A stretch of 64,000 nt of DNA from Kocuria turfanensis (GTDB taxonomy: Bacteria > Actinomycetota > Actinomycetes > Actinomycetales > Micrococcaceae), in assembly GCF_001580365.1 (NCBI RefSeq), contig NZ_CP014480.1, positions 1,923,008 through 1,987,007 on the forward strand, in the 5' to 3' direction. The notes under the pieces were generated by a model that did no database searches, had not been told where the DNA came from, and was given only the letters and a program-made list of their open reading frames with translations. Positions 2-28,566 of this stretch are shown here, in pieces; within the stretch, counting starts at the first letter, position 1, and every line of letters begins with the position of its first letter. The translations under genes were made by a program, and so were the position numbers.

Positions 2-377
2 GAGGTCACCTGGTTCGGCACCGGCATCGACATCCACCACATGGGGGGGCTTCTTCGGCCGGGTGCCCGCCGGGGCGACCGCCTTCCCCAACCGGTCGTC
101 GCGGTACTGGCTCAACGTCTACGGCTACTGGCAGGACCCGGCCGAGGACGCCCGCCTGACCGCCTTCGCCCGGAAGGCCCACGCCGCCATGGCGCCGTTC
201 GCCGAGCTCGGCCAGTACGTGAACTTCCTCGGCGCCGAGCAGGGCCCCGTCACCCCCGAGGCGGCCCGGCAGGCCTACGGGGAGCGGACGCACCAGCGGC
301 TCGTGGAGCTGAAGAACCGCTACGACCCGGGCAACATCTTCCGGCTCAACCACAACATCGTGCCGAGCGCCGCCTGA
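2..377 (+). CDS. FAD-linked oxidase, C-terminal (BBE) fragment, apparently frameshifted
   Basis: This is the 3' end of a flavoprotein oxidase of the berberine-bridge/FAD-linked oxidase type; the gene begins left of the window. The C-terminal segment shows the BBE-domain ending (YVNFLG, then YDPGNIFRLNHNI) used in covalent-FAD oxidases. The reading frame that gives the expected upstream residues (EVTWFGTGIDIHHMGG, from base 2) is not the frame of the C-terminal part (FGRVPAGATAFPNR). The two join if one G is removed from the run of seven G at 43-49. So the gene is either a +1 frameshift pseudogene, a slippage site, or carries a sequencing error. Substrate is unknown. Confidence 0.7.
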   Translation, partial: RSPGSAPASTSTTWGGFFGRVPAGATAFPNRSSRYWLNVYGYWQDPAEDARLTAFARKAHAAMAPFAELGQYVNFLGAEQGPVTPEAARQAYGERTHQRLVELKNRYDPGNIFRLNHNIVPSAA

Positions 378-18524: not shown

Positions 18525-20306
18525 TCACGCGGGCAGGGGCGGGGTGCGCGGGGGGACGGTGCGGCGGGCACCGGTGGCCTCGAAGGCCGCGGCGAGGCGC
18601 AGCAGGGCGGTGTCGTCCCACGCGCGGCCCGCGAGGGTGAGACCCACGGGCATGCCGGTGTCGGCCATCGTGCCCATCGGCACGGTGACGGTCGGGATGC
18701 CCAGGTGCCGGGGCACGAGGTTGCCGTTGGCCACCCACACGCCGTTGCGCCAGGCCCGGTCTGCGGAGGCCGGGTTCACGTCGGCGTCAGCGGGCCCGAC
18801 GTCCGCGACGGCGGGGAAGACCACGGCATCCAGGCCCAGGTCGTCCATCCACTGCTCCAGATCGACGCGGCGGGTCTCCTCGAGCCCGCGCAGCCCCTCC
18901 GCAAGGTGGGGGATCTGCGTCAGCACGGGCACTCCGTGCTCGCGCACGAACTGCGGGTAGTCGGCGATGTCGTCGTCGAACCCGTCGTAGCGGTCGGGCA
19001 GGGCGCCGGGCGGGTGCGGGAAGATCCGGGAACCGTCCACGTCGGCCAGCCGGTGCAGGGCCGGGTCCCCGTTGGCCTCGAGGAAGTCGTGCCACGCCCA
19101 GGATGAGAGGTCCACGATCTCCCGGTGCAGGTACTCCGCGCTCACCAGTCCGCGGGTGGCGACGGTGGGCGCTCCGGGCCGGTCGCCCTCGTAGTTGCTC
19201 ACCACGGGGAAGTCGACCTCGACCACCGTGGCGCCGGCGGCCTCGAGGTCGCGCCGGGCCGCCTCCCACAGCGCGATCACGGAGGGGCGGGTCTCGATGC
19301 GCCGGCCGGTCGGGCCGCCGATGCCCGGGGAGTCGGCGGTGCCGGCCTCGGGGTCGGCGTTGACGTACATCCGCGGCACGCCCAGGCGCCGTCCTGCCAG
19401 GACGCCGGCGGCCGCGGCGGCGTGGGGCACCGCGAGAGCAGGGTAGGAGGCCGGCCGCACCGCCGAGGCGGCCGGGATGTCGACCCAGGGCTGCACGCGC
19501 CAGAAGTCCCCGCGGGTCTCGGGGTCGTCGGCGACCACCACGTCGAGGACCTCGAGCAGGTCGGCCATGGTGCGGGTGTGCGGGACGGCGACGTCCATGC
19601 TGGGCACCAGCGGCCAGTTGCCGCGCACCGAGATCACTCCGCGCGAGGGGGTGTAGGCGCACAGGGCGTTGTTGGAGGCCGGGGCGCGGCCCGACGACCA
19701 GGTCTCCTCGCCGAGGCCGAACACGGCGAAGCTCGCGGCTGTGGCCGTCCCGGAGCCGTTGGAGGAGCCGGACCCGAAGGCCGCGGTGAGGTAGGCCCCG
19801 TTGTAGGGGCTCTCGGCCCGGCCGTAGACCCCGCGCTGCATGCCGCCGTTGGCCATCGGGGGCATGTTGGTCAGCCCGAGCAGCACCGCGCCCCCGGCGC
19901 GCAGCCGCTCGATCGTGAAGGCGTCGCGCCGGGCCACGAGGTGCTCGAACGCGGGCGAGCCGGCTGCCACGGTGAGGCCGCGGACCTGGTAGCTGTCCTT
20001 GGCGGTGTACGGGATCCCGTCCAGGGGACCGAGCACCTCCCCGCGGGCCCGGCGCGCGTCGGAGGCGCGGGCCTCCTCCAGCGCCGCAGGGTTGTCCACG
20101 ACGACGGCGTTGAGCTCCGGGCCGCCGCGGTCGTAGGCCGCGATGCGGGCGAGGTAGGCGGTGACCAGCTCCTCGCTGGTGGTGCGCCCGGCCTCGAGCG
20201 CCGCGCGCAGCCGCGCGATGCTCGCCTCCACGACGTCGATCGCGCGGCCGGGCCTGCCGTCGATCGTGGTGCCGGGCCTGTTGCTCAGGCTGCCGGAGGT
20301 GCTCAT
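18525..20306 (-). CDS. amidase-signature family hydrolase, possibly N-carbamoylputrescine amidase
   Basis: A 593-residue amidase. The Ser-cisSer-Lys triad can be placed at Lys103 (PYTAKDSY), a Ser near 182 (GSGSSNGSGTATA) and Ser205 (ETWSSGRAPA). The C-terminal LGIPTVTVPMG is typical of the family. The length matches a single-domain amidase with extra loops. The start ATG at 20306 overlaps the agmatine deiminase stop (ATGA). Since that enzyme makes N-carbamoylputrescine and no nitrilase-type AguB is present, this amidase may remove the carbamoyl group. That role is inference; allophanate or another amide is possible. Confidence 0.85.
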   Translation of the reverse strand: MSTSGSLSNRPGTTIDGRPGRAIDVVEASIARLRAALEAGRTTSEELVTAYLARIAAYDRGGPELNAVVVDNPAALEEARASDARRARGEVLGPLDGIPYTAKDSYQVRGLTVAAGSPAFEHLVARRDAFTIERLRAGGAVLLGLTNMPPMANGGMQRGVYGRAESPYNGAYLTAAFGSGSSNGSGTATAASFAVFGLGEETWSSGRAPASNNALCAYTPSRGVISVRGNWPLVPSMDVAVPHTRTMADLLEVLDVVVADDPETRGDFWRVQPWVDIPAASAVRPASYPALAVPHAAAAAGVLAGRRLGVPRMYVNADPEAGTADSPGIGGPTGRRIETRPSVIALWEAARRDLEAAGATVVEVDFPVVSNYEGDRPGAPTVATRGLVSAEYLHREIVDLSSWAWHDFLEANGDPALHRLADVDGSRIFPHPPGALPDRYDGFDDDIADYPQFVREHGVPVLTQIPHLAEGLRGLEETRRVDLEQWMDDLGLDAVVFPAVADVGPADADVNPASADRAWRNGVWVANGNLVPRHLGIPTVTVPMGTMADTGMPVGLTLAGRAWDDTALLRLAAAFEATGARRTVPPRTPPLPA

Positions 20307-21412
20307 CGGGTGCCCTCCCCGTCCGTGGCGGCGCCGCGGGGCGACGGCTGCTGCTGGGTGATGCAGTGGATGCCGCCGCCGAACGCGAAGATGTCGCGGG
20401 CGTCGACCAGCTCGACGGCCCGGCCCGGATAGGCCTCGGCGAGGATCTCCGCGGCGAGGGCGTCGTGCGGGTCGTCGAAGGCGCACAGCACGACCACGCC
20501 GTTGGCGACGTAGTGGTTGATGTAGGAATAGTCCACGAACCCGTCGCCGGCGTCGAGCACGGTGGGCGCGGGGACGTCGACGACGCGCAGCCGGCGCCCG
20601 CGGGCGTCGGTGGCGTCCTCGAGCACCGCACGGATCTGCCGGGACACCTCGAAGTCGGGGTGGGCGGGGTCGTCCTGCCGGTGCACCAGGACGGTCCCCG
20701 GCCCGGCGAAGGCGGCAACGATGTCCACGTGGCCGCGGGTGCCGAACTCGTCGTAGTCGCGGGTGAGCCCGCGGGGCAGCCAGATCGCCCGGGACGTGCC
20801 CAGCCGGGCGTGGATCTCCGCTTCCACCTGCTCCTTCGTGGCGCCGGGGTTGCGGCCGGGGTCCAGCTGCACGGTCTCGGTGAGCAGGACGGTCCCCTCG
20901 CCGTCGACGTGGAACCCGCCGCCCTCGTTGACCAGGGTGCTGGCCCGCACCACGGCCCCGGACCGCTCGGCCACGAAACGGCCCAGGTGCTGGTCGTGGC
21001 CCCAGGCGGCCCACTCCTGGGCGCCCCAGCCGTTGAACACCCAGTCCACGGCGACCACGTCCCCGGCCGCGTCGTGGGCGAAGGTGGGCCCGGAGTCGCG
21101 CAGCCACGCGTCGTCGAGCGGAGCCGTCACGACGTCGATGCCCTCCCCCAGCGCGGCGCGGGCGGCGTCGGCGTCGGCGGGTGCGGCCACCACGGTGACG
21201 GGCTCGTGGCGGACGATCGTGCGGGCCACGGCCGCCCAGGCGCGCCGGGCGCGGTCGAGGGTCTCGCTGCCGGCAGGGCCGAAGGTGTCGTTGGGGGGCG
21301 GGAAGGCCATCCAGGTCCGCTCGTGCGGGGCCCACTCGGGGGGCATCACGGTGACCGCGGGGGTGACCGTCTCGGGGTCGGAACGGCTGTCGGCGCGGGT
21401 GGCAGGGTGCAT
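20303..21412 (-). CDS. aguA: agmatine deiminase (PAD_porph family)
   Basis: A 369-residue guanidino-group deiminase. The N-terminal WAPHERTWMAFP, the DDAWLRDSGPTF and VNEGGGFHVDGEG motifs and the catalytic Cys350 in GGGIHCITQQQP are those of agmatine deiminase, which turns agmatine into N-carbamoylputrescine and ammonia. It overlaps the amidase start and follows an amino-acid/polyamine permease, within the putrescine oxidase operon. That supports agmatine rather than peptidyl-arginine as substrate. Confidence 0.93.
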   Translation of the reverse strand: MHPATRADSRSDPETVTPAVTVMPPEWAPHERTWMAFPPPNDTFGPAGSETLDRARRAWAAVARTIVRHEPVTVVAAPADADAARAALGEGIDVVTAPLDDAWLRDSGPTFAHDAAGDVVAVDWVFNGWGAQEWAAWGHDQHLGRFVAERSGAVVRASTLVNEGGGFHVDGEGTVLLTETVQLDPGRNPGATKEQVEAEIHARLGTSRAIWLPRGLTRDYDEFGTRGHVDIVAAFAGPGTVLVHRQDDPAHPDFEVSRQIRAVLEDATDARGRRLRVVDVPAPTVLDAGDGFVDYSYINHYVANGVVVLCAFDDPHDALAAEILAEAYPGRAVELVDARDIFAFGGGIHCITQQQPSPRGAATDGEGTR

Positions 21413-21527: not shown

Positions 21528-23054
21528 TCAGTCGAGGACGGGCAGCTCGGTGGTCTCGAAGCGCTCCCGGAAGAAGGCGGGGTTGCGCCGGTACTGGACG
21601 AGCATGACGACGATGCCGAGCAGGAGCATGCCCACCCCGAGGATGAACACCAGGCCGACCCCGCCGATCGAGGACCCCGAACCGTACTCCGGGTCCATGG
21701 AGTCGTAGGACGTCTGGACGAAGAAGACCAGCAGCAGGATCCCGCCGAGAAGCGGGGCCAGGAACTTGGTCAGGAACGCCTTCGAGGTGCGGAAGGCCTC
21801 GCGGCGGAAGTACCACACGCAGGCCAGGGCGGTGACCCCGTAGTAGAAGCACACCATCATCCCCAGGGTGGTGATGGTGTCCCACAGGACGTTCTCGGAG
21901 ACCACGCGCATGACGGCGTAGAACACCGAGGCGATGACGGCCGCCGCGATCGTGGCGTAGCCCGGGGACTGGAAGCGGGAGGTGATCCGGGCGTACTTCG
22001 CCGGGAGCGCGCCGTAGTGGCCCATGGCGAGCATGGTGCGCGCCGGGGAGATCATCGTGGACTGCAGCGACGCCGCCGAGGAGGACAGCACGGCGAGGGA
22101 CATCAGGATCGCGAACGGCCCCATGACCGGCCCGGCGAGCGCCGCGAAGACGTTCTCCTGGATGTCCTCGTTGCCCAGGCCGAGCTCGGCGGACCCCACC
22201 CCCGAGTAGGACAGCACGGCGAGCGAGACGGCCATGTAGAGGGCGACGATGACGAGGATGGTCGCGATGGCCGAGCGGCCGGGCCCGGTGGTGGAGTCCT
22301 TGCTCTCCTCGTTGAGGGTGAGCACCACGTCCCAGCCCCAGTAGATGAACACGGACAGGGACACCCCCGCGGCGAACGCGGAGAAGGTCTCCACACCGAA
22401 CGGGTTGAACCACTCGGCGCGCACGACGAGGCCCTCGAAGGCCGTGCCGCCGGCGACGTGGCCGAAGGCCGCGGCGGCGAACCACAGCAGGACGAGCAGC
22501 TGGAAGACGACCAGGACGTACTGCACCACCTTGGTGGCTTCCATGCCGCGGTAGGAGATCCAGGCCGCGGCCGCCACGAACGCCAGGCAGGTGGCCACGT
22601 TGACGGGCACGTTGCGGGTGAGCTCCGCGATGGCGTCGTTGCCGGTGATCTGGGCGAGGGCCAGGTAGAAGAAGTCCACGGCGATGCCGGCCAGGTTGGA
22701 CAGCACGAGGATGGTCGCGGCGAGGAGGCCCCAGCTGCCCATCCACCCCACCCAGGGGCCGAAGGCCTTCGACACCCAGGTGAAGGTGGTGCCGGAGTCG
22801 GGCATGGCCCGGTTGAGCTGCCGGTATCCGACGGCCACGAGGAGCATGGGCACGAAGCCGACCAGCAGGATCGCCGGGAGATGGGTCCCCACCGCGGCGG
22901 CGGTGGGCCCGAGGGCGCCGGAGAGGGTGTAGGCGGGCGCGATGGTGGACACGCCGATGACCACGGAGCCGAGGAGGCCCACGGAGCCCTTGCTGAGCCC
23001 CTTCTCGTGGCGGGTGCTGCGCTCGTGGGCGAGCGGTGCGGTGCCGGTGCTCAT
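21528..23054 (-). CDS. APC-family permease, probable putrescine/polyamine importer
   Basis: A 508-residue twelve-helix amino acid-polyamine-organocation permease. Family motifs near the start include GLLGSVVIGVSTIAPAYTLSGALG and DSGTTFTWVSKAFGPWVGWMGSW; a further stretch VFIYWGWDVVLTLNEESKD lies in mid-protein. The start ATG at 23054 overlaps the usp stop as ATGA, so it is translationally tied to the putrescine oxidase operon. The neighbours suggest putrescine or agmatine uptake; the sequence alone does not fix the substrate. Confidence 0.9.
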   Translation of the reverse strand: MSTGTAPLAHERSTRHEKGLSKGSVGLLGSVVIGVSTIAPAYTLSGALGPTAAAVGTHLPAILLVGFVPMLLVAVGYRQLNRAMPDSGTTFTWVSKAFGPWVGWMGSWGLLAATILVLSNLAGIAVDFFYLALAQITGNDAIAELTRNVPVNVATCLAFVAAAAWISYRGMEATKVVQYVLVVFQLLVLLWFAAAAFGHVAGGTAFEGLVVRAEWFNPFGVETFSAFAAGVSLSVFIYWGWDVVLTLNEESKDSTTGPGRSAIATILVIVALYMAVSLAVLSYSGVGSAELGLGNEDIQENVFAALAGPVMGPFAILMSLAVLSSSAASLQSTMISPARTMLAMGHYGALPAKYARITSRFQSPGYATIAAAVIASVFYAVMRVVSENVLWDTITTLGMMVCFYYGVTALACVWYFRREAFRTSKAFLTKFLAPLLGGILLLVFFVQTSYDSMDPEYGSGSSIGGVGLVFILGVGMLLLGIVVMLVQYRRNPAFFRERFETTELPVLD

Positions 23055-23947
23055 GACGCGGCCTCCTTCTCGGTCTGGTCCGGAGCATCCTCCGGGAGGG
23101 GCCGGGGCACGACGACCATCGGCACCGGGATGTGCTTGAGCAGCCGGGCTGCGGTGGTGCCCAGGAAGGTCTGCCGCCCCTGGGCCAGGCGGGAGGAGCC
23201 GATGAGCAGGATCCCGCCCGGGGCCCAGTCGACGTCCTGGGCGGCCTTCTTGAGGGTCCGCCCGGAGGCGACCCGCACGGTCACGGGCCGGGTGCGGCGG
23301 GCCTCGGCCGCCGCGGCCTCCAGGTGCTCCTCGACGCGGCGGCGGGCCTGCTCGGTGGCGTCCGGGTCCGCGGCCTCTCCCTCGAGGAAGGAGAGCAGCT
23401 CCAGCTCCAGGCCGGAGCGCTCGACGGCCTCGACCGCCTCCCGGATGACCTGGTGCGCACCGGGGCGGGTGCCCACGGCGGCGTAGAGCCGGGTGATCGG
23501 CTCGTCCCCGGGATACCGGCGCGGGGCGAGGGCCACCGGGACCGGGGAGCTGTGCAGCAGCGAGTTCACCACGGAACCCAGGGTCAGGCGCCCGCCGCCC
23601 GTGCCGGCGCCGACCACGATCATCGCGGCCCCGAACTCGGTGGCGGCCTCGACCAGTCCGGCCGGCACGGACCGGGCCTCGCGCACGTGGGTGCGGGCCG
23701 TGACCTCCTCGGGCACCAGCGCGGCGGCCTCGCGCAGCCACTGGTGGGCCTGCCGGTGGAGCACCGGCGAGATGTCGCCCACCGGCGGGTAGACCTGCTG
23801 GTACGGGTCGTCCGTGCGCAGCACGAGGACGATCTCCAGCTCGGCGCCCACGTCGCGGGCGAGCGCGGCGCCCAGCCGCACGGCGTCGCGGCTGCGGCGG
23901 TCGCCGCTGCAGCCGATGACGTAGCGCGGCACCCCGGCGGTGGTCAT
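23051..23947 (-). CDS. tandem-domain universal stress protein in the polyamine operon
   Basis: A 298-residue UspA-like protein with two domains. The first has VVGAGTGGGRLTLGSVVNSLL and the second LIGSSRLAQGRQTFLGTTAARLLKHIPVPMVVVP. The ATP-binding glycine pattern is weaker than in the Usp pair at 11433-13339. It overlaps both the oxidase and the permease genes by ATGA, so it belongs to the operon. Usp genes coupled to permeases are known; a role in controlling the transporter is plausible but inferred. Confidence 0.85.
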   Translation of the reverse strand: MTTAGVPRYVIGCSGDRRSRDAVRLGAALARDVGAELEIVLVLRTDDPYQQVYPPVGDISPVLHRQAHQWLREAAALVPEEVTARTHVREARSVPAGLVEAATEFGAAMIVVGAGTGGGRLTLGSVVNSLLHSSPVPVALAPRRYPGDEPITRLYAAVGTRPGAHQVIREAVEAVERSGLELELLSFLEGEAADPDATEQARRRVEEHLEAAAAEARRTRPVTVRVASGRTLKKAAQDVDWAPGGILLIGSSRLAQGRQTFLGTTAARLLKHIPVPMVVVPRPLPEDAPDQTEKEAAS

Positions 23948-25380
23948 CGCCCCGCTCCCGTCAGCGCGCCGGCGCGGAGGATCCCGTCCGCCGCGGCGCG
24001 GCCCTGGCGCAGGGCCCCGTCGACGTGCTGGTAGCCCTCGGCGGCGAGGTCGGAGCAGGCCCAGCGGATCGGGCCCACCGGGGTGGCCTGGTGCGCGCCG
24101 TAGCGGTGCAGCCCGCCGAGGTCGTAGCTGGCGGCGTAGGCGCCGCGGGTCCACTCCTCGGAGCCGAAGTCGGACTCGTAGTAGACCACCGGCTCCAGCG
24201 CCTCCTCGCCGAGGTAGCGGGCGAGGGACTCGAGGATCAGCCGGCGGCGCTCCTCGGCGGGCAGGGCGAGGACCGCGTCGGCCTTCTCGTCGGAGACGAA
24301 GCCCACCAGGGTGCCCCGCGGGTCCTCGTGGTTGGTGTTGTCGTAGACCTCCTGGCACAGCTCGTGGGCGCCGAAGCCGGTGCCGGAGAGGCCCTGGGCC
24401 CGCCAGAACGGCGTCTCGTACACCGCGTGCACCTTGATCACCAGGCCCAGGGACTGGTGCTGGTGCATCTGGTGCTGCAGCCGCGGCAGGGGCGGCTCGA
24501 AGGAGATCCGGGAGTAGAGGTTCGGCGGGACGGCCACGACCACGTCGCGGGCGACCACGGTGAGCCGGTCGGACCAGACGGTCACGGGGGTCCCGGGCAC
24601 GTGCTCGGCGTAGGTCTGCCCCTCGCCGGCCCAGCGGATGGTCCGCACCGGGGTGTTCAGGAACACGACGTCCTCCCCGAGCTCGGCGGCCATGGTCTCG
24701 GAGACGGACTGCATGCCGCCGACCACGCGGCGGTCCAGGATGAAGTCCTCGTCCACGAGGTGGGAGAAGGACCCGGCGGAGGCGGCCATCAGCACGGCCT
24801 GCAGCGCGGAGAACGCGTGCGCCGGCTTGGTGAGCATCCCGCCGGCCACGAAGATGCCGATGTTGTCGCAGGCGGCCTCGTCCGAGGACTGCTGCCGCAG
24901 CCAGGAGGAGAAGGAGATCGTGTCCAGCTCCCGGGCCAGCGGGTGCGCCCACGGCTGCGCCACGCCGATCTGCTCGACCAGCCCGTCGAGGATCCCGACG
25001 AGCCGCTCCATCTCGGCGATCGTGGACTCCCCGGCGGGGAACATCGACCCGGTGTAGGTGTGGCGGGCGCCGTCGGGGGCGAGATAGACGGACTCGCCCT
25101 CGCGGTAGCGCTGGTAGGTGCCCAGGCCGAGCTCGTCGACGAGGGCGAGCAGCTCGGTCTGGTCCGGGGAGATCCACTGCCCGCCGAGCTCGAGGAAGGC
25201 GCCCTCGACGGTCTGCGACCAGGTGCGCCCGCCCACGCGGTCGCGGGCCTCCAGGACGGCCACGGTGCGCCCGGCGGCCACGAGCGCGCGGGCGGCCATC
25301 AGCCCCGCGGGACCGGCTCCCACGACGACGACGTCGCGCTCGATCGCGGTCTCGCTGCCCAGGGTGCGTTGATCGGTCAC
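23944..25380 (-). CDS. puo: putrescine oxidase (flavin monoamine oxidase family)
   Basis: A 478-residue FAD amine oxidase. The dinucleotide site VVVVGAGPAGLMAARAL is near residues 17-33, followed by LEARDRVGGRTW and GGQWISPDQ; the C-terminal GYQHVDGALRQGRAAADGIL closes the FAD site. Overall it strongly resembles Kocuria/Rhodococcus putrescine oxidase, which converts putrescine to 4-aminobutanal, ammonia and H2O2. The GTG at 25380 has AAGGAG six bases upstream; longer starts would run into the operator at 25397-25420. It heads an operon puo-usp-permease-aguA-amidase. Confidence 0.93.
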   Translation of the reverse strand: MTDQRTLGSETAIERDVVVVGAGPAGLMAARALVAAGRTVAVLEARDRVGGRTWSQTVEGAFLELGGQWISPDQTELLALVDELGLGTYQRYREGESVYLAPDGARHTYTGSMFPAGESTIAEMERLVGILDGLVEQIGVAQPWAHPLARELDTISFSSWLRQQSSDEAACDNIGIFVAGGMLTKPAHAFSALQAVLMAASAGSFSHLVDEDFILDRRVVGGMQSVSETMAAELGEDVVFLNTPVRTIRWAGEGQTYAEHVPGTPVTVWSDRLTVVARDVVVAVPPNLYSRISFEPPLPRLQHQMHQHQSLGLVIKVHAVYETPFWRAQGLSGTGFGAHELCQEVYDNTNHEDPRGTLVGFVSDEKADAVLALPAEERRRLILESLARYLGEEALEPVVYYESDFGSEEWTRGAYAASYDLGGLHRYGAHQATPVGPIRWACSDLAAEGYQHVDGALRQGRAAADGILRAGALTGAGR

Positions 25381-25396: not shown

Positions 25397-25420
25397 CTAA
25401 AATGAACTTGATTCATTAAG
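25397..25420. promoter_or_regulatory. operator upstream of puo (TetR-type inverted repeat)
   Basis: A 24-bp site with half-sites CTAAAATGAA (25397-25406) and TTCATTAAG (25412-25420), 17 bp before the puo start. The same palindrome, consensus CTAAATGA-N8-TCATTTAG, recurs at 28543-28566 before the aldehyde dehydrogenase. The local TetR gene at 26387 is the obvious binder. Confidence 0.75.
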
Positions 25421-25493
25421 CGGGAGCGCACCGGGACCCGTCAAGAGCCGCAACAAGAAATTCACACAGCGGGTCCGCCCCGCTGCGGGAACG

Positions 25494-26225
25494 CTACTTC
25501 TTGGTCCGCCGGCTCCCGGCGTGCCAGTCCTCCTCGGCCCCGGGGCGGTCCGGGGCGGCTCCGAGTCCCCGCAGCTGCGGCTGCTCCCGGAGGCTGCGCT
25601 TGAGCTCGGCGAAGCCGGGGAAGCGGGCGAGCGCCACCACGTGGTCCCACAGCTCGAGGGCCTCGTCCTCCCCCGGGAGCCGGCTGATGACCGGGCCGAA
25701 GAAGGCCACGCCCTCCGGGGGGCCGAAGTGGATGATCGGCGTGCCCACGTCCCGGCCCGTCAGGGTCAGCGCCTCCTCGGTCTCGGCCCGGACCACCGCG
25801 TCCAGGGACTCGTCGTCGAGGGCGGCGGCCAGTGCGGCCGGGAGCCCGGCGGCCTCCAGGACCGGCTCGAGGAAGGCCGGTGTGGCGCGGCGGTCCTTCC
25901 CGGGCGTCCCGGGGTCGGGCACCGGGTCGGCGTCGAAGGTGTGCGCCCCGAGGGCCTCGTACAGCCGCCCCACGGCCTCGCGGCCGTGCTCGGCGCGGGT
26001 GCGGGCGGCCACCCGCAGCAGGTGCAGGCCGGCCGTGTGGCCGGCCTCGTACTCGGGCGGGAACCACGCGTCGTAGTCCACGTGCTCGTTGAGCAGGCGC
26101 AGGGAGATGAACCGCCAGTCCACCCGGTGGTCCCTCCGGGCTGCGACCGTGCGGACCCACTTGCTGGTCAGCCAGGCGAACGGGCAGGTGGGGTCGAAGT
26201 AGAAGTGCAGGTCGGCGTCCGTCAT
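25494..26225 (-). CDS. DsbA-fold thioredoxin-like protein (Rv2466c/mycothiol nitroreductase type)
   Basis: A 243-residue DsbA-like protein beginning LHFYFDPTCPFAWLTSKWV, the opening of the mycothiol-dependent oxidoreductase family of M. tuberculosis Rv2466c. Here the active site reads CPFA, so only the N-terminal Cys is kept. That suggests a glutaredoxin-like, mycothiol-dependent mechanism. TPAFLEPVLEAAGLP and VGTPIIHFG (cis-Pro loop) complete the fold. The ATG at 26225 begins 7 nt after TAGCGT (26238-26233) with no ribosome site, so it is probably leaderless. Confidence 0.82.
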   Translation of the reverse strand: MTDADLHFYFDPTCPFAWLTSKWVRTVAARRDHRVDWRFISLRLLNEHVDYDAWFPPEYEAGHTAGLHLLRVAARTRAEHGREAVGRLYEALGAHTFDADPVPDPGTPGKDRRATPAFLEPVLEAAGLPAALAAALDDESLDAVVRAETEEALTLTGRDVGTPIIHFGPPEGVAFFGPVISRLPGEDEALELWDHVVALARFPGFAELKRSLREQPQLRGLGAAPDRPGAEEDWHAGSRRTKK

Positions 26226-26265
26226 CGTCCACACGCTAGGACCGCCCCGGGCGGCGGTCAAGGAT

Positions 26266-26293
26266 CCGGGCGGCCGCGGACACGGCCGCCCGG
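26266..26293. other. hairpin in the DsbA-like/TetR divergent region
   Basis: Perfect 11-bp GC arms (26266-26276 and 26283-26293) with a 6-nt loop lie upstream of a TAGACT -10-like box (26303-26308) for the TetR gene. It could be an operator, a terminator-like element or chance in GC-rich DNA. Confidence 0.4.
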
Positions 26294-26386
26294 CCGCCGA
26301 CCTAGACTCGACCTGACCGCCCGCCCCCGGCGGCCGCCCCCGGCGGCACCGGGACCCGCAGCACCGACTCCAGGAGGACACCGCCC

Positions 26387-27052
26387 ATGGCTCCCGCCCG
26401 AACCCCTCCTCGGCGCCGCGGGCGCCCGAGCCAGCCGGTGCTCTCCGAGGAGCGGATCACCAGCGCCGCCATCAAGATCGTGGCCACCCGGGGCTACCAG
26501 CACCTCACCATGACGGAGCTCGCCCGCGAGCTGAAGGTCTCCACCTCGGCGCTGTACAACCACACGTCCTCGAAGCGCGACGTGCTGATCCGCGTCCAGG
26601 ACCGGATCAACCAGGGCATCGACCGCTCCGGCTTCGGCAGCCTCCCGTGGGACGGGGCCCTCGAGCGCTGGGCACGGTCCTACCGGGACTGCTACGCCCA
26701 GCACACGGCGATGATCCCGATCATGGCCGTGCTGCCGGTGGCGGACTCCCCGCACACCCTGGAGATGTACGAGGCCGTGGCCCGGGGGCTCGCGGACGCC
26801 GGCTGGGCGCGCGGCGACATCGCCGACGTGATCGTCTCGGTCGAGTCCCTGGTCTTCGGCGCCGCCTACGACGCCACCGCGCCGGCCGACATCTTCGACC
26901 CCGGGGAGCGCTCGGACCTGGCCCCGGTGTTCGCCGACGCCGTGCGGGCCCGCCCCGCGGACGCGGCGGCGGCGGCCGACGAGGCGTTCGACGTGGCCCT
27001 GCGCGCCATGCTGGACGGCCTGCGCCTGCGCCTGGCGGCCGGGCGGGACTGA
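26387..27052 (+). CDS. TetR-family regulator, probable repressor of the polyamine genes
   Basis: A 221-residue TetR regulator. The N-terminal HTH spans roughly residues 20-65 (ITSAAIKIVATRGYQHLTMTELARELKVSTSALYNHTSSKRDVLIR in parts). The helical C-terminal domain would bind the inducer. CAGGAGG precedes the ATG. The gene sits between puo and the aldehyde dehydrogenase, both of which carry the same 24-bp palindrome in their promoters. It has no copy in its own promoter that I can see. Target and ligand (perhaps putrescine or an aminoaldehyde) are inferred from position. Confidence 0.88.
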   Translation: MAPARTPPRRRGRPSQPVLSEERITSAAIKIVATRGYQHLTMTELARELKVSTSALYNHTSSKRDVLIRVQDRINQGIDRSGFGSLPWDGALERWARSYRDCYAQHTAMIPIMAVLPVADSPHTLEMYEAVARGLADAGWARGDIADVIVSVESLVFGAAYDATAPADIFDPGERSDLAPVFADAVRARPADAAAAADEAFDVALRAMLDGLRLRLAAGRD

Positions 27053-27066
27053 CCCGCCCGGCCCGC

Positions 27067-28500
27067 TCAGACGTCCAGGGCGTGCATGACGTGCTTGACC
27101 TGGGTGTACTCCTCGACCGAGTAGAGGGAGAGGTCCTTGCCGTAGCCGGAGTTCTTGAACCCGCCGTGCGGCATCTCGGAGGTCAGCATGACGTGGGTGT
27201 TGACCCACACGCAGCCGAACTCGAGGTCGCGGGAGACCCGCATGGCCGTGCCGTGGTCGGTGGTCCACACGCTCGAGGCCAGCGCGTAGTCCACGTCGTT
27301 GGCGAGCTCGAGCGCCTCTTCCTCCGTGCTGAAGGGCTGCACGGTGAGCACCGGGCCGAAGGTCTCCTCCTGCACGAGGGCGTCGTCCTGGTGGACCCCG
27401 GTCACCACGGTGGGCTCGAAGAAGTAGCCGGGGGCTCCCTCGACCGGCTTCCCGCCGGTGACCACGGTCGCGTGCCCGGGCAGGTCGGCGAGCTTGCGGC
27501 AGACGTCCTCGAAGTGCCGGACGTTGTTGAGCGGGCCGTAGAAGTTCTTGGACTCGTCCGGGTCCCCGGTCACGATGTCCCGGGCGGCCGCGGCCAGCAG
27601 CCGCACGAACTCGTCGTGGGCGCTGTCCTGGACCAGGATGCGGGTCACCGCGGTGCAGTCCTGGCCGGCGTTGAAGGTGCCGAACTCGACGAGGGCCCTG
27701 GCGGCGGCGGGCAGGTCGGCGTCCGCGAACACGACGGCGGGCGCCTTGCCGCCCAGCTCGAGGTGGCCGCGGGTGAGGTTCTGCGCCGCGGCCAGGGCCA
27801 CCGCGCGGCCGGCGCGCACGGAGCCGGTGATGGAGACCATGGAGGGCGTGCGGTGGGCGGTCATGAGCGCCCCCGTGGAGCCGTCCCCCAGGAGGATGTT
27901 CACCACGCCGGCGGGGAAGATGCCGTCGATGAGCCGGGCCAGCACGAGGGTGGACTCGGGCGTGGTGTCCGAGGGCTTGAGGACCACGGTGTTGCCCGCG
28001 GCCAGCGCGGGGCCGAGCTTCCAGATCGCCATGAGCAGCGGGTAGTTCCAGGGGGTGACCTGCGCGACGACGCCGACCGGCTCGCGCCGCACGTAGGAGG
28101 TGTGCTCGCCCATGTACTCCGCGGCGGCCTTGCCCTCGAGGGTGCGGGCCGCGCCGGCGAAGAAGCGCAGGTTGTCGGCGCCGGCGGCGACCTCCTCGTC
28201 CGCGATCATCTGGCGGGGCTGGCCGGTGTTGCGGTGCTGGGCGTCGACGAGCTCGGAGCTGTGCGCCTCGAGCGCGTCCGCGAGCCGGAGCAGCATGAGC
28301 TGGCGCTCGCTCGGGGTGGTGCGCTTCCAGGTCCGGAAGGCCTTCTTGGCGGCGGCGAAGGCCTGGTCCACGTCCGTGGCGTCGGAGACCGGGGAGACGG
28401 CCACCGTCTTCCCGGTGGCCGGGTCGACCACGTCGATCCGGCCGGTGCCGTGGGCGTCGACGAAGGCGCCGTCGACGTAGTTCTGCAGGACGTCGCTCAT
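27067..28500 (-). CDS. aldehyde dehydrogenase, probable 4-aminobutyraldehyde dehydrogenase
   Basis: A 477-residue NAD(P)-dependent aldehyde dehydrogenase. Catalytic Cys282 (NAGQDC) and Glu248 (LELGGKAP) are present, with TPWNYPL and the NAD-site SITGSV. The NAGQDC context and the C-terminal GGFKNSGYGKDLS are typical of the gamma-aminobutyraldehyde/betaine aldehyde group. It would oxidise the 4-aminobutanal made by putrescine oxidase to GABA. GAGGAG precedes the ATG. Its promoter holds the same operator as puo, and it converges on the TetR gene with a 14-bp gap. Confidence 0.92.
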   Translation of the reverse strand: MSDVLQNYVDGAFVDAHGTGRIDVVDPATGKTVAVSPVSDATDVDQAFAAAKKAFRTWKRTTPSERQLMLLRLADALEAHSSELVDAQHRNTGQPRQMIADEEVAAGADNLRFFAGAARTLEGKAAAEYMGEHTSYVRREPVGVVAQVTPWNYPLLMAIWKLGPALAAGNTVVLKPSDTTPESTLVLARLIDGIFPAGVVNILLGDGSTGALMTAHRTPSMVSITGSVRAGRAVALAAAQNLTRGHLELGGKAPAVVFADADLPAAARALVEFGTFNAGQDCTAVTRILVQDSAHDEFVRLLAAAARDIVTGDPDESKNFYGPLNNVRHFEDVCRKLADLPGHATVVTGGKPVEGAPGYFFEPTVVTGVHQDDALVQEETFGPVLTVQPFSTEEEALELANDVDYALASSVWTTDHGTAMRVSRDLEFGCVWVNTHVMLTSEMPHGGFKNSGYGKDLSLYSVEEYTQVKHVMHALDV

Positions 28501-28542
28501 GGTGGGGTCTCCTCTGCGGGCGGGAACACGGTGCCGCCCACT

Positions 28543-28566
28543 CTAAATGATCGGGTTTCATTTTAG
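28543..28566. promoter_or_regulatory. operator upstream of the aldehyde dehydrogenase, matching the puo operator
   Basis: Read on the minus strand, the 24-bp site starts CTAAAATGAA, identical to the first ten bases of the puo site, and ends TCATTTAG. Spacing of the halves is the same in both. It lies 43-66 bp before the dehydrogenase start. Confidence 0.75.

What the first reader, a model, noticed from the sequence alone, without database searches (positions are those of the whole stretch)
25397..28566. One TetR, two identical operators: a putrescine-degradation regulon
The 24-bp sites at 25397-25420 (before putrescine oxidase) and 28543-28566 (before the aldehyde dehydrogenase) share their first ten bases CTAAAATGAA, the half TCATT at the same spacing, and consensus CTAAATGA-N8-TCATTTAG. 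Such AT-rich sites stand out in this GC-rich DNA. The TetR gene at 26387 lies between the two and has no copy at its own promoter. This predicts a dedicated polyamine repressor, released by putrescine or 4-aminobutanal.
Basis: partly seen in the sequence, partly recalled or inferred. Interest (0 to 1): 0.8.

Follow-up and report, generated by a model that had tools for sequence, protein, structure and literature searches.

The report
TetR repressor of putrescine-breakdown genes
A local on/off switch, a TetR-type repressor with two matching DNA landing sites, very probably controls the genes with which this bacterium breaks down putrescine; the parts are of an ordinary kind, but the same switch is found in many related bacteria and I found no description of it.

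Summary
The shared element is a dyad, TWAATGAAYNNNRTTCATTWA (core AATGA-N7-TCATT). In the 4.16-Mb genome the exact core occurs only at these two places. Across 92 genomes with the TetR, 80 of 83 puo genes and 34 of 37 ALDH genes with readable upstream DNA carry the core with at most one mismatch. Where puo lies away from tetR, the site is at puo in 5 of 8 genomes. Puo genes in 12 genomes without a close TetR ortholog lack it. The left half-site coincides with a predicted -10 box, so steric repression is the likely mechanism. Here tetR lacks its own site, probably because a nitroreductase gene lies between it and puo. The inducer is untested; putrescine is the likeliest guess. Position 12 is T in 79 of 80 puo operators and in 0 of 34 ALDH operators, a conserved difference that may order induction. 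Verdict: a well-supported, apparently undescribed TetR regulon of ordinary architecture.

The parts
25397..25420 (-). Operator 1 (puo operator); exact core AATGA-N7-TCATT at 25401-25417, symmetric AATGAA-N5-TTCATT
25415..25420 (-). Predicted -10 box CTTAAT of the puo promoter, overlapping the operator's left half
   Evidence: sequence; spacing statistics; inferred
25439..25444 (-). Predicted -35 box TTGACG of the puo promoter, 18 bp from the -10 box
   Evidence: sequence; inferred
28543..28566 (-). Operator 2 (ALDH operator); core at 28546-28562, asymmetric (AATGAA ... ATCATT read along ALDH)
28560..28565 (-). Predicted -10 box TAAAAT of the ALDH promoter, overlapping the operator's left half; -35 weak
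   Evidence: sequence; inferred
26387..27052 (+). TetR-family regulator, 221 aa (TetR_N + TetR_C_1), predicted repressor
23944..25380 (-). Putrescine oxidase (puo), GTG start, 478 aa
   Evidence: Pfam amine oxidase; putrescine oxidases 3rha and 2yg3/2yg5 are the best PDB matches
27067..28500 (-). 4-aminobutanal (gamma-aminobutyraldehyde) dehydrogenase, 477 aa
   Evidence: NCBIfam NF010000 aminobutyraldehyde dehydrogenase subfamily, 656.2 bits against cut-off 615
23051..23947 (-). Universal stress protein; ATGA overlap with puo, so predicted same operon
21528..23054 (-). APC-type amine/amino-acid permease; ATGA overlap with the usp gene
20303..21412 (-). Agmatine deiminase-like protein (below the AguA equivalog cut-off), possibly in the same operon
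   Evidence: TIGR03380 282.9 bits, cut-off 381.8
18525..20306 (-). Amidase-signature amidase; start overlaps the end of the agmatine deiminase-like gene; last gene of the presumed operon
25494..26225 (-). Rv2466c-like mycothiol-dependent nitroreductase, lying between tetR and puo in 5 of 24 syntenic genomes

Best explanation
The TetR-family protein at 26387-27052 is the dedicated local repressor of putrescine catabolism in this Kocuria-type genome. As a dimer it binds a 21-bp dyad (TWAATGAAYNNNRTTCATTWA) that overlaps the -10 box and predicted start of transcription of two promoters: one for the presumed operon puo - usp - permease - agmatine deiminase-like - amidase, one for the 4-aminobutanal dehydrogenase. 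Bound, it blocks RNA polymerase; when a polyamine metabolite (most likely putrescine) fills its ligand domain it lets go, and oxidase, uptake and aldehyde-clearing enzyme are made together. Shown here: the sites, their rarity, their conservation, their dependence on the TetR's presence, their position relative to promoter-like hexamers. Inferred: binding, repression, the operon's extent, the inducer.
For: Only two exact core sites in 4.16 Mb, both here; reversed control 0. In 24 genomes with the ortholog (this one, 17 congeners, 6 other genera) tetR is in one cluster with puo in 24 of 24. AATGAA-N6-TCATT at 0 mismatches in these 24 genomes occurs at 34 places: 15 upstream of puo, 14 of ALDH, 2 at agmatine genes, 1 before an MFS gene inside the cluster, 2 unassigned; 3 of the 24 genomes have none; reversed control 1 place. 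Over 92 genomes: puo 65 exact + 15 with one mismatch of 83; ALDH 32 + 2 of 37; random windows 90 of 3680. Where puo lies away from tetR the site is at puo in 3 (exact) + 2 (one mismatch) of 8. The 9 congeners without the TetR have no puo at E 1e-30. puo genes in 12 genomes without a close TetR ortholog have no site: 10 class members, best match 3-5 mismatches upstream (one of them, G191, matches only from residue 79 on, so its true upstream is uncertain), and G030 and G036, none with up to 1 mismatch in 16 kb. The hexamer at site positions -2..3 has a partner with at least 4 letters of TTGACA in 19 (spacing 17) and 20 (spacing 18) of 80 puo promoters and, at 17, in 13 of 34 ALDH promoters; other spacings 0-4.
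Against: Two genomes (G005, G025) keep the TetR and an ALDH site (1 mismatch in G025) but have no recognisable site at puo, and G015 has one with 2 mismatches. Three of 37 ALDH genes, none adjacent to tetR, lack the site (L144, L160, L165), and the best ALDH relatives of three TetR-bearing genomes (L092, L093, L094) have none with up to 1 mismatch in 4.4 kb. In three Cryobacterium genomes puo has no site; the sites there lie at a permease and, in two, at tetR. Of 14 other TetR-bearing genomes 3 lack the strict symmetric motif. At 1 mismatch the pattern also occurs in genomes without the TetR, up to 35 places against 13 for the control in G030, so only exact or well-placed matches count. No binding, expression or ligand data exist here.
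Confidence: 0.92

Rival explanations
1. Same repressor and operators, but the signal is not putrescine: agmatine, N-carbamoylputrescine, 4-aminobutanal, cadaverine or another amine releases it.
For: The site also heads agmatine genes: aguA in L056, L111, L124 (3 exact of 30 aguA genes), an aguB-like gene in L086 (below the AguB equivalog cut-off), and with one mismatch a gene that looks AguB-like by eye in L128. Residues Y99, Y128, E129, E153 and D162 in the ligand domain are invariant in 47 orthologs, which would suit any cationic ligand; E129 is not invariant in the other, 18-sequence alignment.
Against: Putrescine is the one metabolite common to the agmatine branch and the puo/ALDH branch; an early intermediate such as agmatine would not report putrescine supplied from outside. 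This is inference only.
Confidence: 0.35
2. Another regulator (for example a global nitrogen regulator) reads the two sites, and the TetR is a bystander.
For: tetR carries no copy of the site at its own promoter in this window.
Against: No site was found at puo in 12 genomes without a close ortholog of this TetR; a global regulator would have many sites, but there are two exact sites in the genome. Over the 92 genomes 75 of 91 tetR genes have the core with up to 1 mismatch within about 250 nt upstream.
Confidence: 0.04
3. The conserved AT-rich blocks are only core promoter elements, not an operator.
For: The left half coincides with the -10-like hexamer in both promoters.
Against: A right half at fixed distance, where no -10 box is expected, is found in 80 of 83 puo and 34 of 37 ALDH genes against 90 of 3680 random windows. 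Core columns are conserved by construction, but positions outside the searched core also are: at puo positions 6, 12, -1 and 18 agree in 76, 79, 71 and 75 of 80. puo promoters in genomes without the TetR lack both halves.
Confidence: 0.02

Closest known systems
TetR/AcrR-family local repressors with a dyad over the target promoter
   Same: TetR_N and TetR_C_1 domains above Pfam cut-off, a predicted TetR fold, palindromic site over -10-like boxes, neighbouring targets
   Different: Operator sequence and target pathway; matches no named NCBIfam TetR equivalog above cut-off
PuuR of Escherichia coli (repressor of the puu putrescine genes; PMC9397018, passages seen)
   Same: Local repressor of putrescine use, per that review
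   Different: Different pathway (gamma-glutamylation, not oxidase); PuuR belongs to another protein family (recalled, not tested)
AguR of Pseudomonas aeruginosa (PMC4287709, start of abstract in a search listing only)
   Same: Regulator of agmatine deiminase genes; a TetR-family repressor as far as I recall
   Different: Proteobacterial; no puo link that I know of; sequence not compared
Putrescine oxidase gene cluster of Actinobacteria (Foster et al. 2013, Syst Appl Microbiol 36:457; seen only as a reference, not held)
   Same: From memory of its abstract: oxidase, dehydrogenase and regulatory, stress and transport genes form one cluster in Micrococcaceae, rhodococci and corynebacteria
   Different: I could not read whether it names this TetR; I recall no operator
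Rha04620 of Rhodococcus sp. RHA1, PDB 2g7g
   Same: Nearest solved structure by sequence and fold (E 5.9e-30; TM-score 0.83 by query length, 34% identity)
   Different: Function not stated in its title; not shown to be an ortholog

Membership tests
TetR family of transcriptional regulators | N-terminal TetR_N helix-turn-helix domain | tested here: met
   PF00440 36.8 bits, cut-off 24
TetR family of transcriptional regulators | Helical C-terminal ligand/dimer domain and TetR fold | tested here: met
   PF02909 45.5 bits, cut-off 21; model mean pLDDT 91.1; the listed best PDB matches are mostly named TetR-family proteins
TetR family of transcriptional regulators | Binds a palindromic operator as a dimer | not testable with these tools
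   A conserved dyad is present; binding itself needs a bench test
TetR family of transcriptional regulators | Released by a small ligand | not testable with these tools
   No ligand data
Putrescine oxidase (puo) | Flavin amine oxidase closest to proven putrescine oxidases | tested here: met
   3rha 717 bits, 2yg3 704.4 bits; next different enzyme 259.8 bits
4-aminobutanal dehydrogenase | Above NCBIfam cut-off for the subfamily | tested here: met
   NF010000 656.2 bits, cut-off 615; but below the stricter equivalog TIGR03374, 522.4 against 909.3
Agmatine deiminase AguA (20303-21412) | Above NCBIfam equivalog cut-off | tested here: not met
   TIGR03380 282.9 bits, cut-off 381.8; named only as agmatine deiminase-like
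PuuR-type putrescine repressor | Member of the PuuR protein family | not tested
   Sequences not compared; this protein is TetR-family

The most novel reading that the evidence does not exclude
One repressor sets an order of induction through a conserved difference between its two operators. At puo the dyad is symmetric (position 12 T in 79 of 80); at ALDH one half-site is altered at that base (T in 0 of 34; A 28, G 4, C 2), on the same side along the gene in all 34, in Kocuria, Nocardiopsis, Nesterenkonia, Glycomyces and a Propionibacteriaceae MAG. If the altered half binds more weakly, the aldehyde-clearing enzyme is released before the oxidase that makes aldehyde and hydrogen peroxide: a built-in safety order.
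Probability: 0.3. Interest if true: 0.55.

Novelty: new member of a known kind. Interest (0 to 1): 0.4.

Why it matters
It gives a tight, testable operator and a candidate regulator for a pathway whose enzyme, putrescine oxidase, is used in amine assays and in engineered strains, and for whose control in these Actinomycetota I found no description in the searched library. It could also give a polyamine-responsive promoter/repressor pair for high-GC hosts, and the conserved puo/ALDH operator difference makes the order of induction in a pathway with a toxic intermediate directly measurable.

Tried and rejected

I first thought that Rothia, Cryobacterium and similar genomes had the TetR without puo, which would have excluded 4-aminobutanal as inducer; one search found puo elsewhere in 8 of the 9 genomes checked, so the argument was dropped. 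I first read the extra site in G008 as belonging to a second tetR (so in note 1); searches show that it precedes an MFS transporter gene downstream of that tetR. Note 2 says 18 places; a recount gives 17.

The pattern with 1 mismatch is not specific across genomes and was not used as evidence alone. Core columns of the logos are conserved by construction, since sites were picked by match to the core. Fisher's p of 3e-28 for the operator difference ignores relatedness and possible horizontal transfer of the cluster (the Nocardiopsis and Glycomyces proteins are closer to this one than most Arthrobacter ones are); I rest on the spread over genera instead. In one search the genus labels were typed, and unlabelled loci were pooled as Arthrobacter.

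Unassigned exact sites: G034:C11:707081 and G011:C7:7745; one of the five sites of G315 was not looked at.

Literature: ten searches. Among the rows listed none names this regulator or operator in title or shown abstract; three listings were cut (25 of 2,981, 15 of 38, 10 of 20). Passages of PMC8511785, PMC9397018 and PMC3534580 were seen, the rest only as listings. The library lacks most subscription journals.

The script left out G031, whose site was seen.
Full report
WHAT IS THERE. The window carries, on the minus strand, a putrescine oxidase gene (puo, 25380-23944) followed with ATGA overlaps by a universal stress protein and an APC permease, then an agmatine deiminase-like gene and an amidase. 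A Rv2466c-like nitroreductase gene (26225-25494, minus) and a TetR gene (26387-27052, plus) follow upstream, then a 4-aminobutanal dehydrogenase gene (28500-27067, minus). Puo is identified by its closest solved relatives, which are putrescine oxidases, the dehydrogenase by NCBIfam NF010000 above cut-off.

THE SITES. Both stated 24-mers are there. Read along the genes, site 1 is CTTAATGAATCAAGTTCATTTTAG and site 2 CTAAAATGAAACCCGATCATTTAG. In the window the core has two exact matches and no match with up to 3 mismatches at the tetR promoter. In the whole genome (4,159,643 bases) exact matches are these two only, one more has 1 mismatch (C1:3546772, in the L003 stretch, whose two larger ORFs do not look polyamine-related by eye), and the reversed control has none.

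RELATIVES. TetR was searched in 59 genomes, this one and 58 relatives. At 41% identity or more it is present in this genome, 17 of 26 congeners and 6 genomes of other genera, and in all 24 it is in one cluster with puo. In 5 of the 24 (this genome, G019, G013, G016, G008) the nitroreductase gene lies between tetR and puo. In the other 19 tetR and puo are direct neighbours, divergent in 18 and co-directional in G031; where a site is found it lies between them. That probably explains why tetR here has no site: the gap was split and the site stayed with puo (inference). Upstream of ALDH the core is exact in 14 of 15 and has 1 mismatch in 1; upstream of puo it is exact in 14 of 23, has 1 mismatch in 6, 2 in G015, and is not recognisable in G005 and G025 (the 24th, G031, has an exact one). 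All nine congeners without the TetR have no puo at E 1e-30 (one of them, G002, is only 79% complete).

GENOME-WIDE SPECIFICITY. AATGAA-N6-TCATT at 0 mismatches was searched in the 24 genomes; 21 have it. The listing holds 34 distinct places: 15 before puo, 14 before ALDH, 1 before an aguB-like - aguA-like - permease set (G034; L086), 1 before aguA (G029), 1 before an MFS gene in the cluster (G008), 2 unassigned. The reversed control gave 1 place. In 14 other, mostly more distant TetR-bearing genomes WATGAA-N5-TTCATT was found in 11, at 17 places, 9 of them at puo and 2 at aguA, and the control none; three Nocardiopsis and one Glycomyces genome, of about 6-8 Mb, have exactly one each, at puo (positions matched). 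Of the other 6, one precedes an aldehyde dehydrogenase resembling SSADH (G316, below cut-off), two lie near permease-like genes and one near an old-yellow-enzyme-like gene in G315, one (G314) lies beside what looks by eye like a ribosomal protein gene and may be chance, one was not examined. Against this, the pattern with 1 mismatch is common in some relatives, also those without the TetR.

WIDER FOOTPRINT. A scan of named genomes returned the best 80 of 338 encoded relatives; 12 duplicate the unnamed set, leaving 92 genomes. Of 83 puo genes with enough upstream DNA, 65 have the exact core, 15 one mismatch, 1 two, 2 four. Of 37 ALDH genes 32 are exact, 2 have one mismatch and 3 four or five. 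Of 30 agmatine deiminase genes 3 are exact and 27 have three or more mismatches. Random 270-nt windows of the same loci reach 1 mismatch or fewer in 90 of 3680, true sites included. Plasmid copies in two Arthrobacter records and one Rhodococcus qingshengii record show the same tetR-puo pair and site, two exact and one with 1 mismatch.

TWO CONTROLS. (a) Separated genes: of nine genomes where no complete puo was seen beside tetR, eight have puo elsewhere. There the core is exact in 3 (L181, L182, L185), has 1 mismatch in 2 (L183, L184, Rothia) and is absent in 3 Cryobacterium genomes, whose puo is a more distant copy of 63-64% identity. The ninth (Nocardiopsis sp. FR4) has only a puo fragment beside tetR. 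(b) puo without this TetR: 12 of 246 class-level genomes have puo at E 1e-150, two of them already counted; the other ten have no TetR above 39% identity and the best match to the core in about 280 nt is 3-5 mismatches away. One of the ten, G191, matches puo only from residue 79 on and with a stop, so its upstream is uncertain. G030 and G036 likewise have none with up to 1 mismatch in 16 kb. This ties the site to the TetR rather than to puo.

MECHANISM. In both promoter groups the hexamer at site positions -2 to 3 looks like a -10 box (CTTAAT here at puo, TAAAAT at ALDH), and TTGACA-like hexamers (at least 4 letters) cluster at spacing 17 and 18: 19 and 20 of 80 puo promoters, and 13 of 34 ALDH promoters at 17; other spacings give 0-4. 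So about half of the puo and most of the ALDH promoters show no such -35 box. This genome's puo promoter is TTGACG-N18-CTTAAT; its ALDH -35 is weak. A protein bound to the dyad would cover the -10 box and start. Repression with release by a pathway ligand is therefore the most likely mode; activation is unlikely from this position (inference).

OPERATOR DIFFERENCE. Along the gene, position 12 is T in 79 of 80 puo sites but never in 34 ALDH sites (A 28, G 4, C 2), while its partner position 6 is A in 76 of 80 and 34 of 34. Neither position was part of the searched core. By genus it holds in Kocuria (15), Nocardiopsis (12), Nesterenkonia (5), Glycomyces (1) and a Propionibacteriaceae MAG (1). 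Relatedness and transfer make the true number of independent cases smaller. I read it as tuned affinity; a promoter constraint on the same base is the plain alternative.

LIGAND. No call identifies it. Putrescine is favoured because it is the common metabolite of the agmatine branch and the puo/ALDH branch. W95, Y99, Y128, E129, E153 and D162 in the ligand domain are invariant among 47 orthologs; in a second set of 18 all but E129 are invariant. The fold model is good (pLDDT 91.1) and closest to PDB 2g7g.

NOVELTY. The gene cluster as such appears to be known (Foster et al. 2013, recalled; only its title was seen, in a reference list). Ten searches of the paper library listed no description of this regulator or operator. 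By architecture it is an ordinary TetR regulon: a new member of a known kind.

Noticed in passing
window 18525-21412 (-): The agmatine deiminase-like gene overlaps an amidase-signature amidase (NCBIfam NF005127), where other genomes have a CN_hydrolase that looks like AguB (Pfam-tested in L086, by eye in L128); it may be a non-orthologous N-carbamoylputrescine amidohydrolase.
   Followed up: partly
L037:2919-4899 (-): In G008 (K. rosea TA 28 contig) a second TetR (33% identical) followed by an MFS transporter gene sits inside the cluster, with an exact site TAATGAAAGCCTTTCATTTAG before the MFS gene: a possible paralog with an overlapping operator.
   Followed up: partly
L113:5481-6627: Nocardiopsis sp. 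FR4 keeps tetR, permease and an exact site, but only a fragment matches puo beside tetR, and no puo was found in its genome at E 1e-30.
   Followed up: no
window 25494-26225: A mycothiol-dependent nitroreductase (Rv2466c-like) gene lies between tetR and the puo operator in 5 of 24 syntenic genomes, parting tetR from its presumed autoregulatory site.
   Followed up: partly
L142:5923-5939 and L173:5929-5945: In two Cryobacterium genomes the exact core lies just before tetR itself and a 1-mismatch site before a neighbouring permease, while puo, elsewhere, has none: the regulon seems rewired to uptake.
   Followed up: partly
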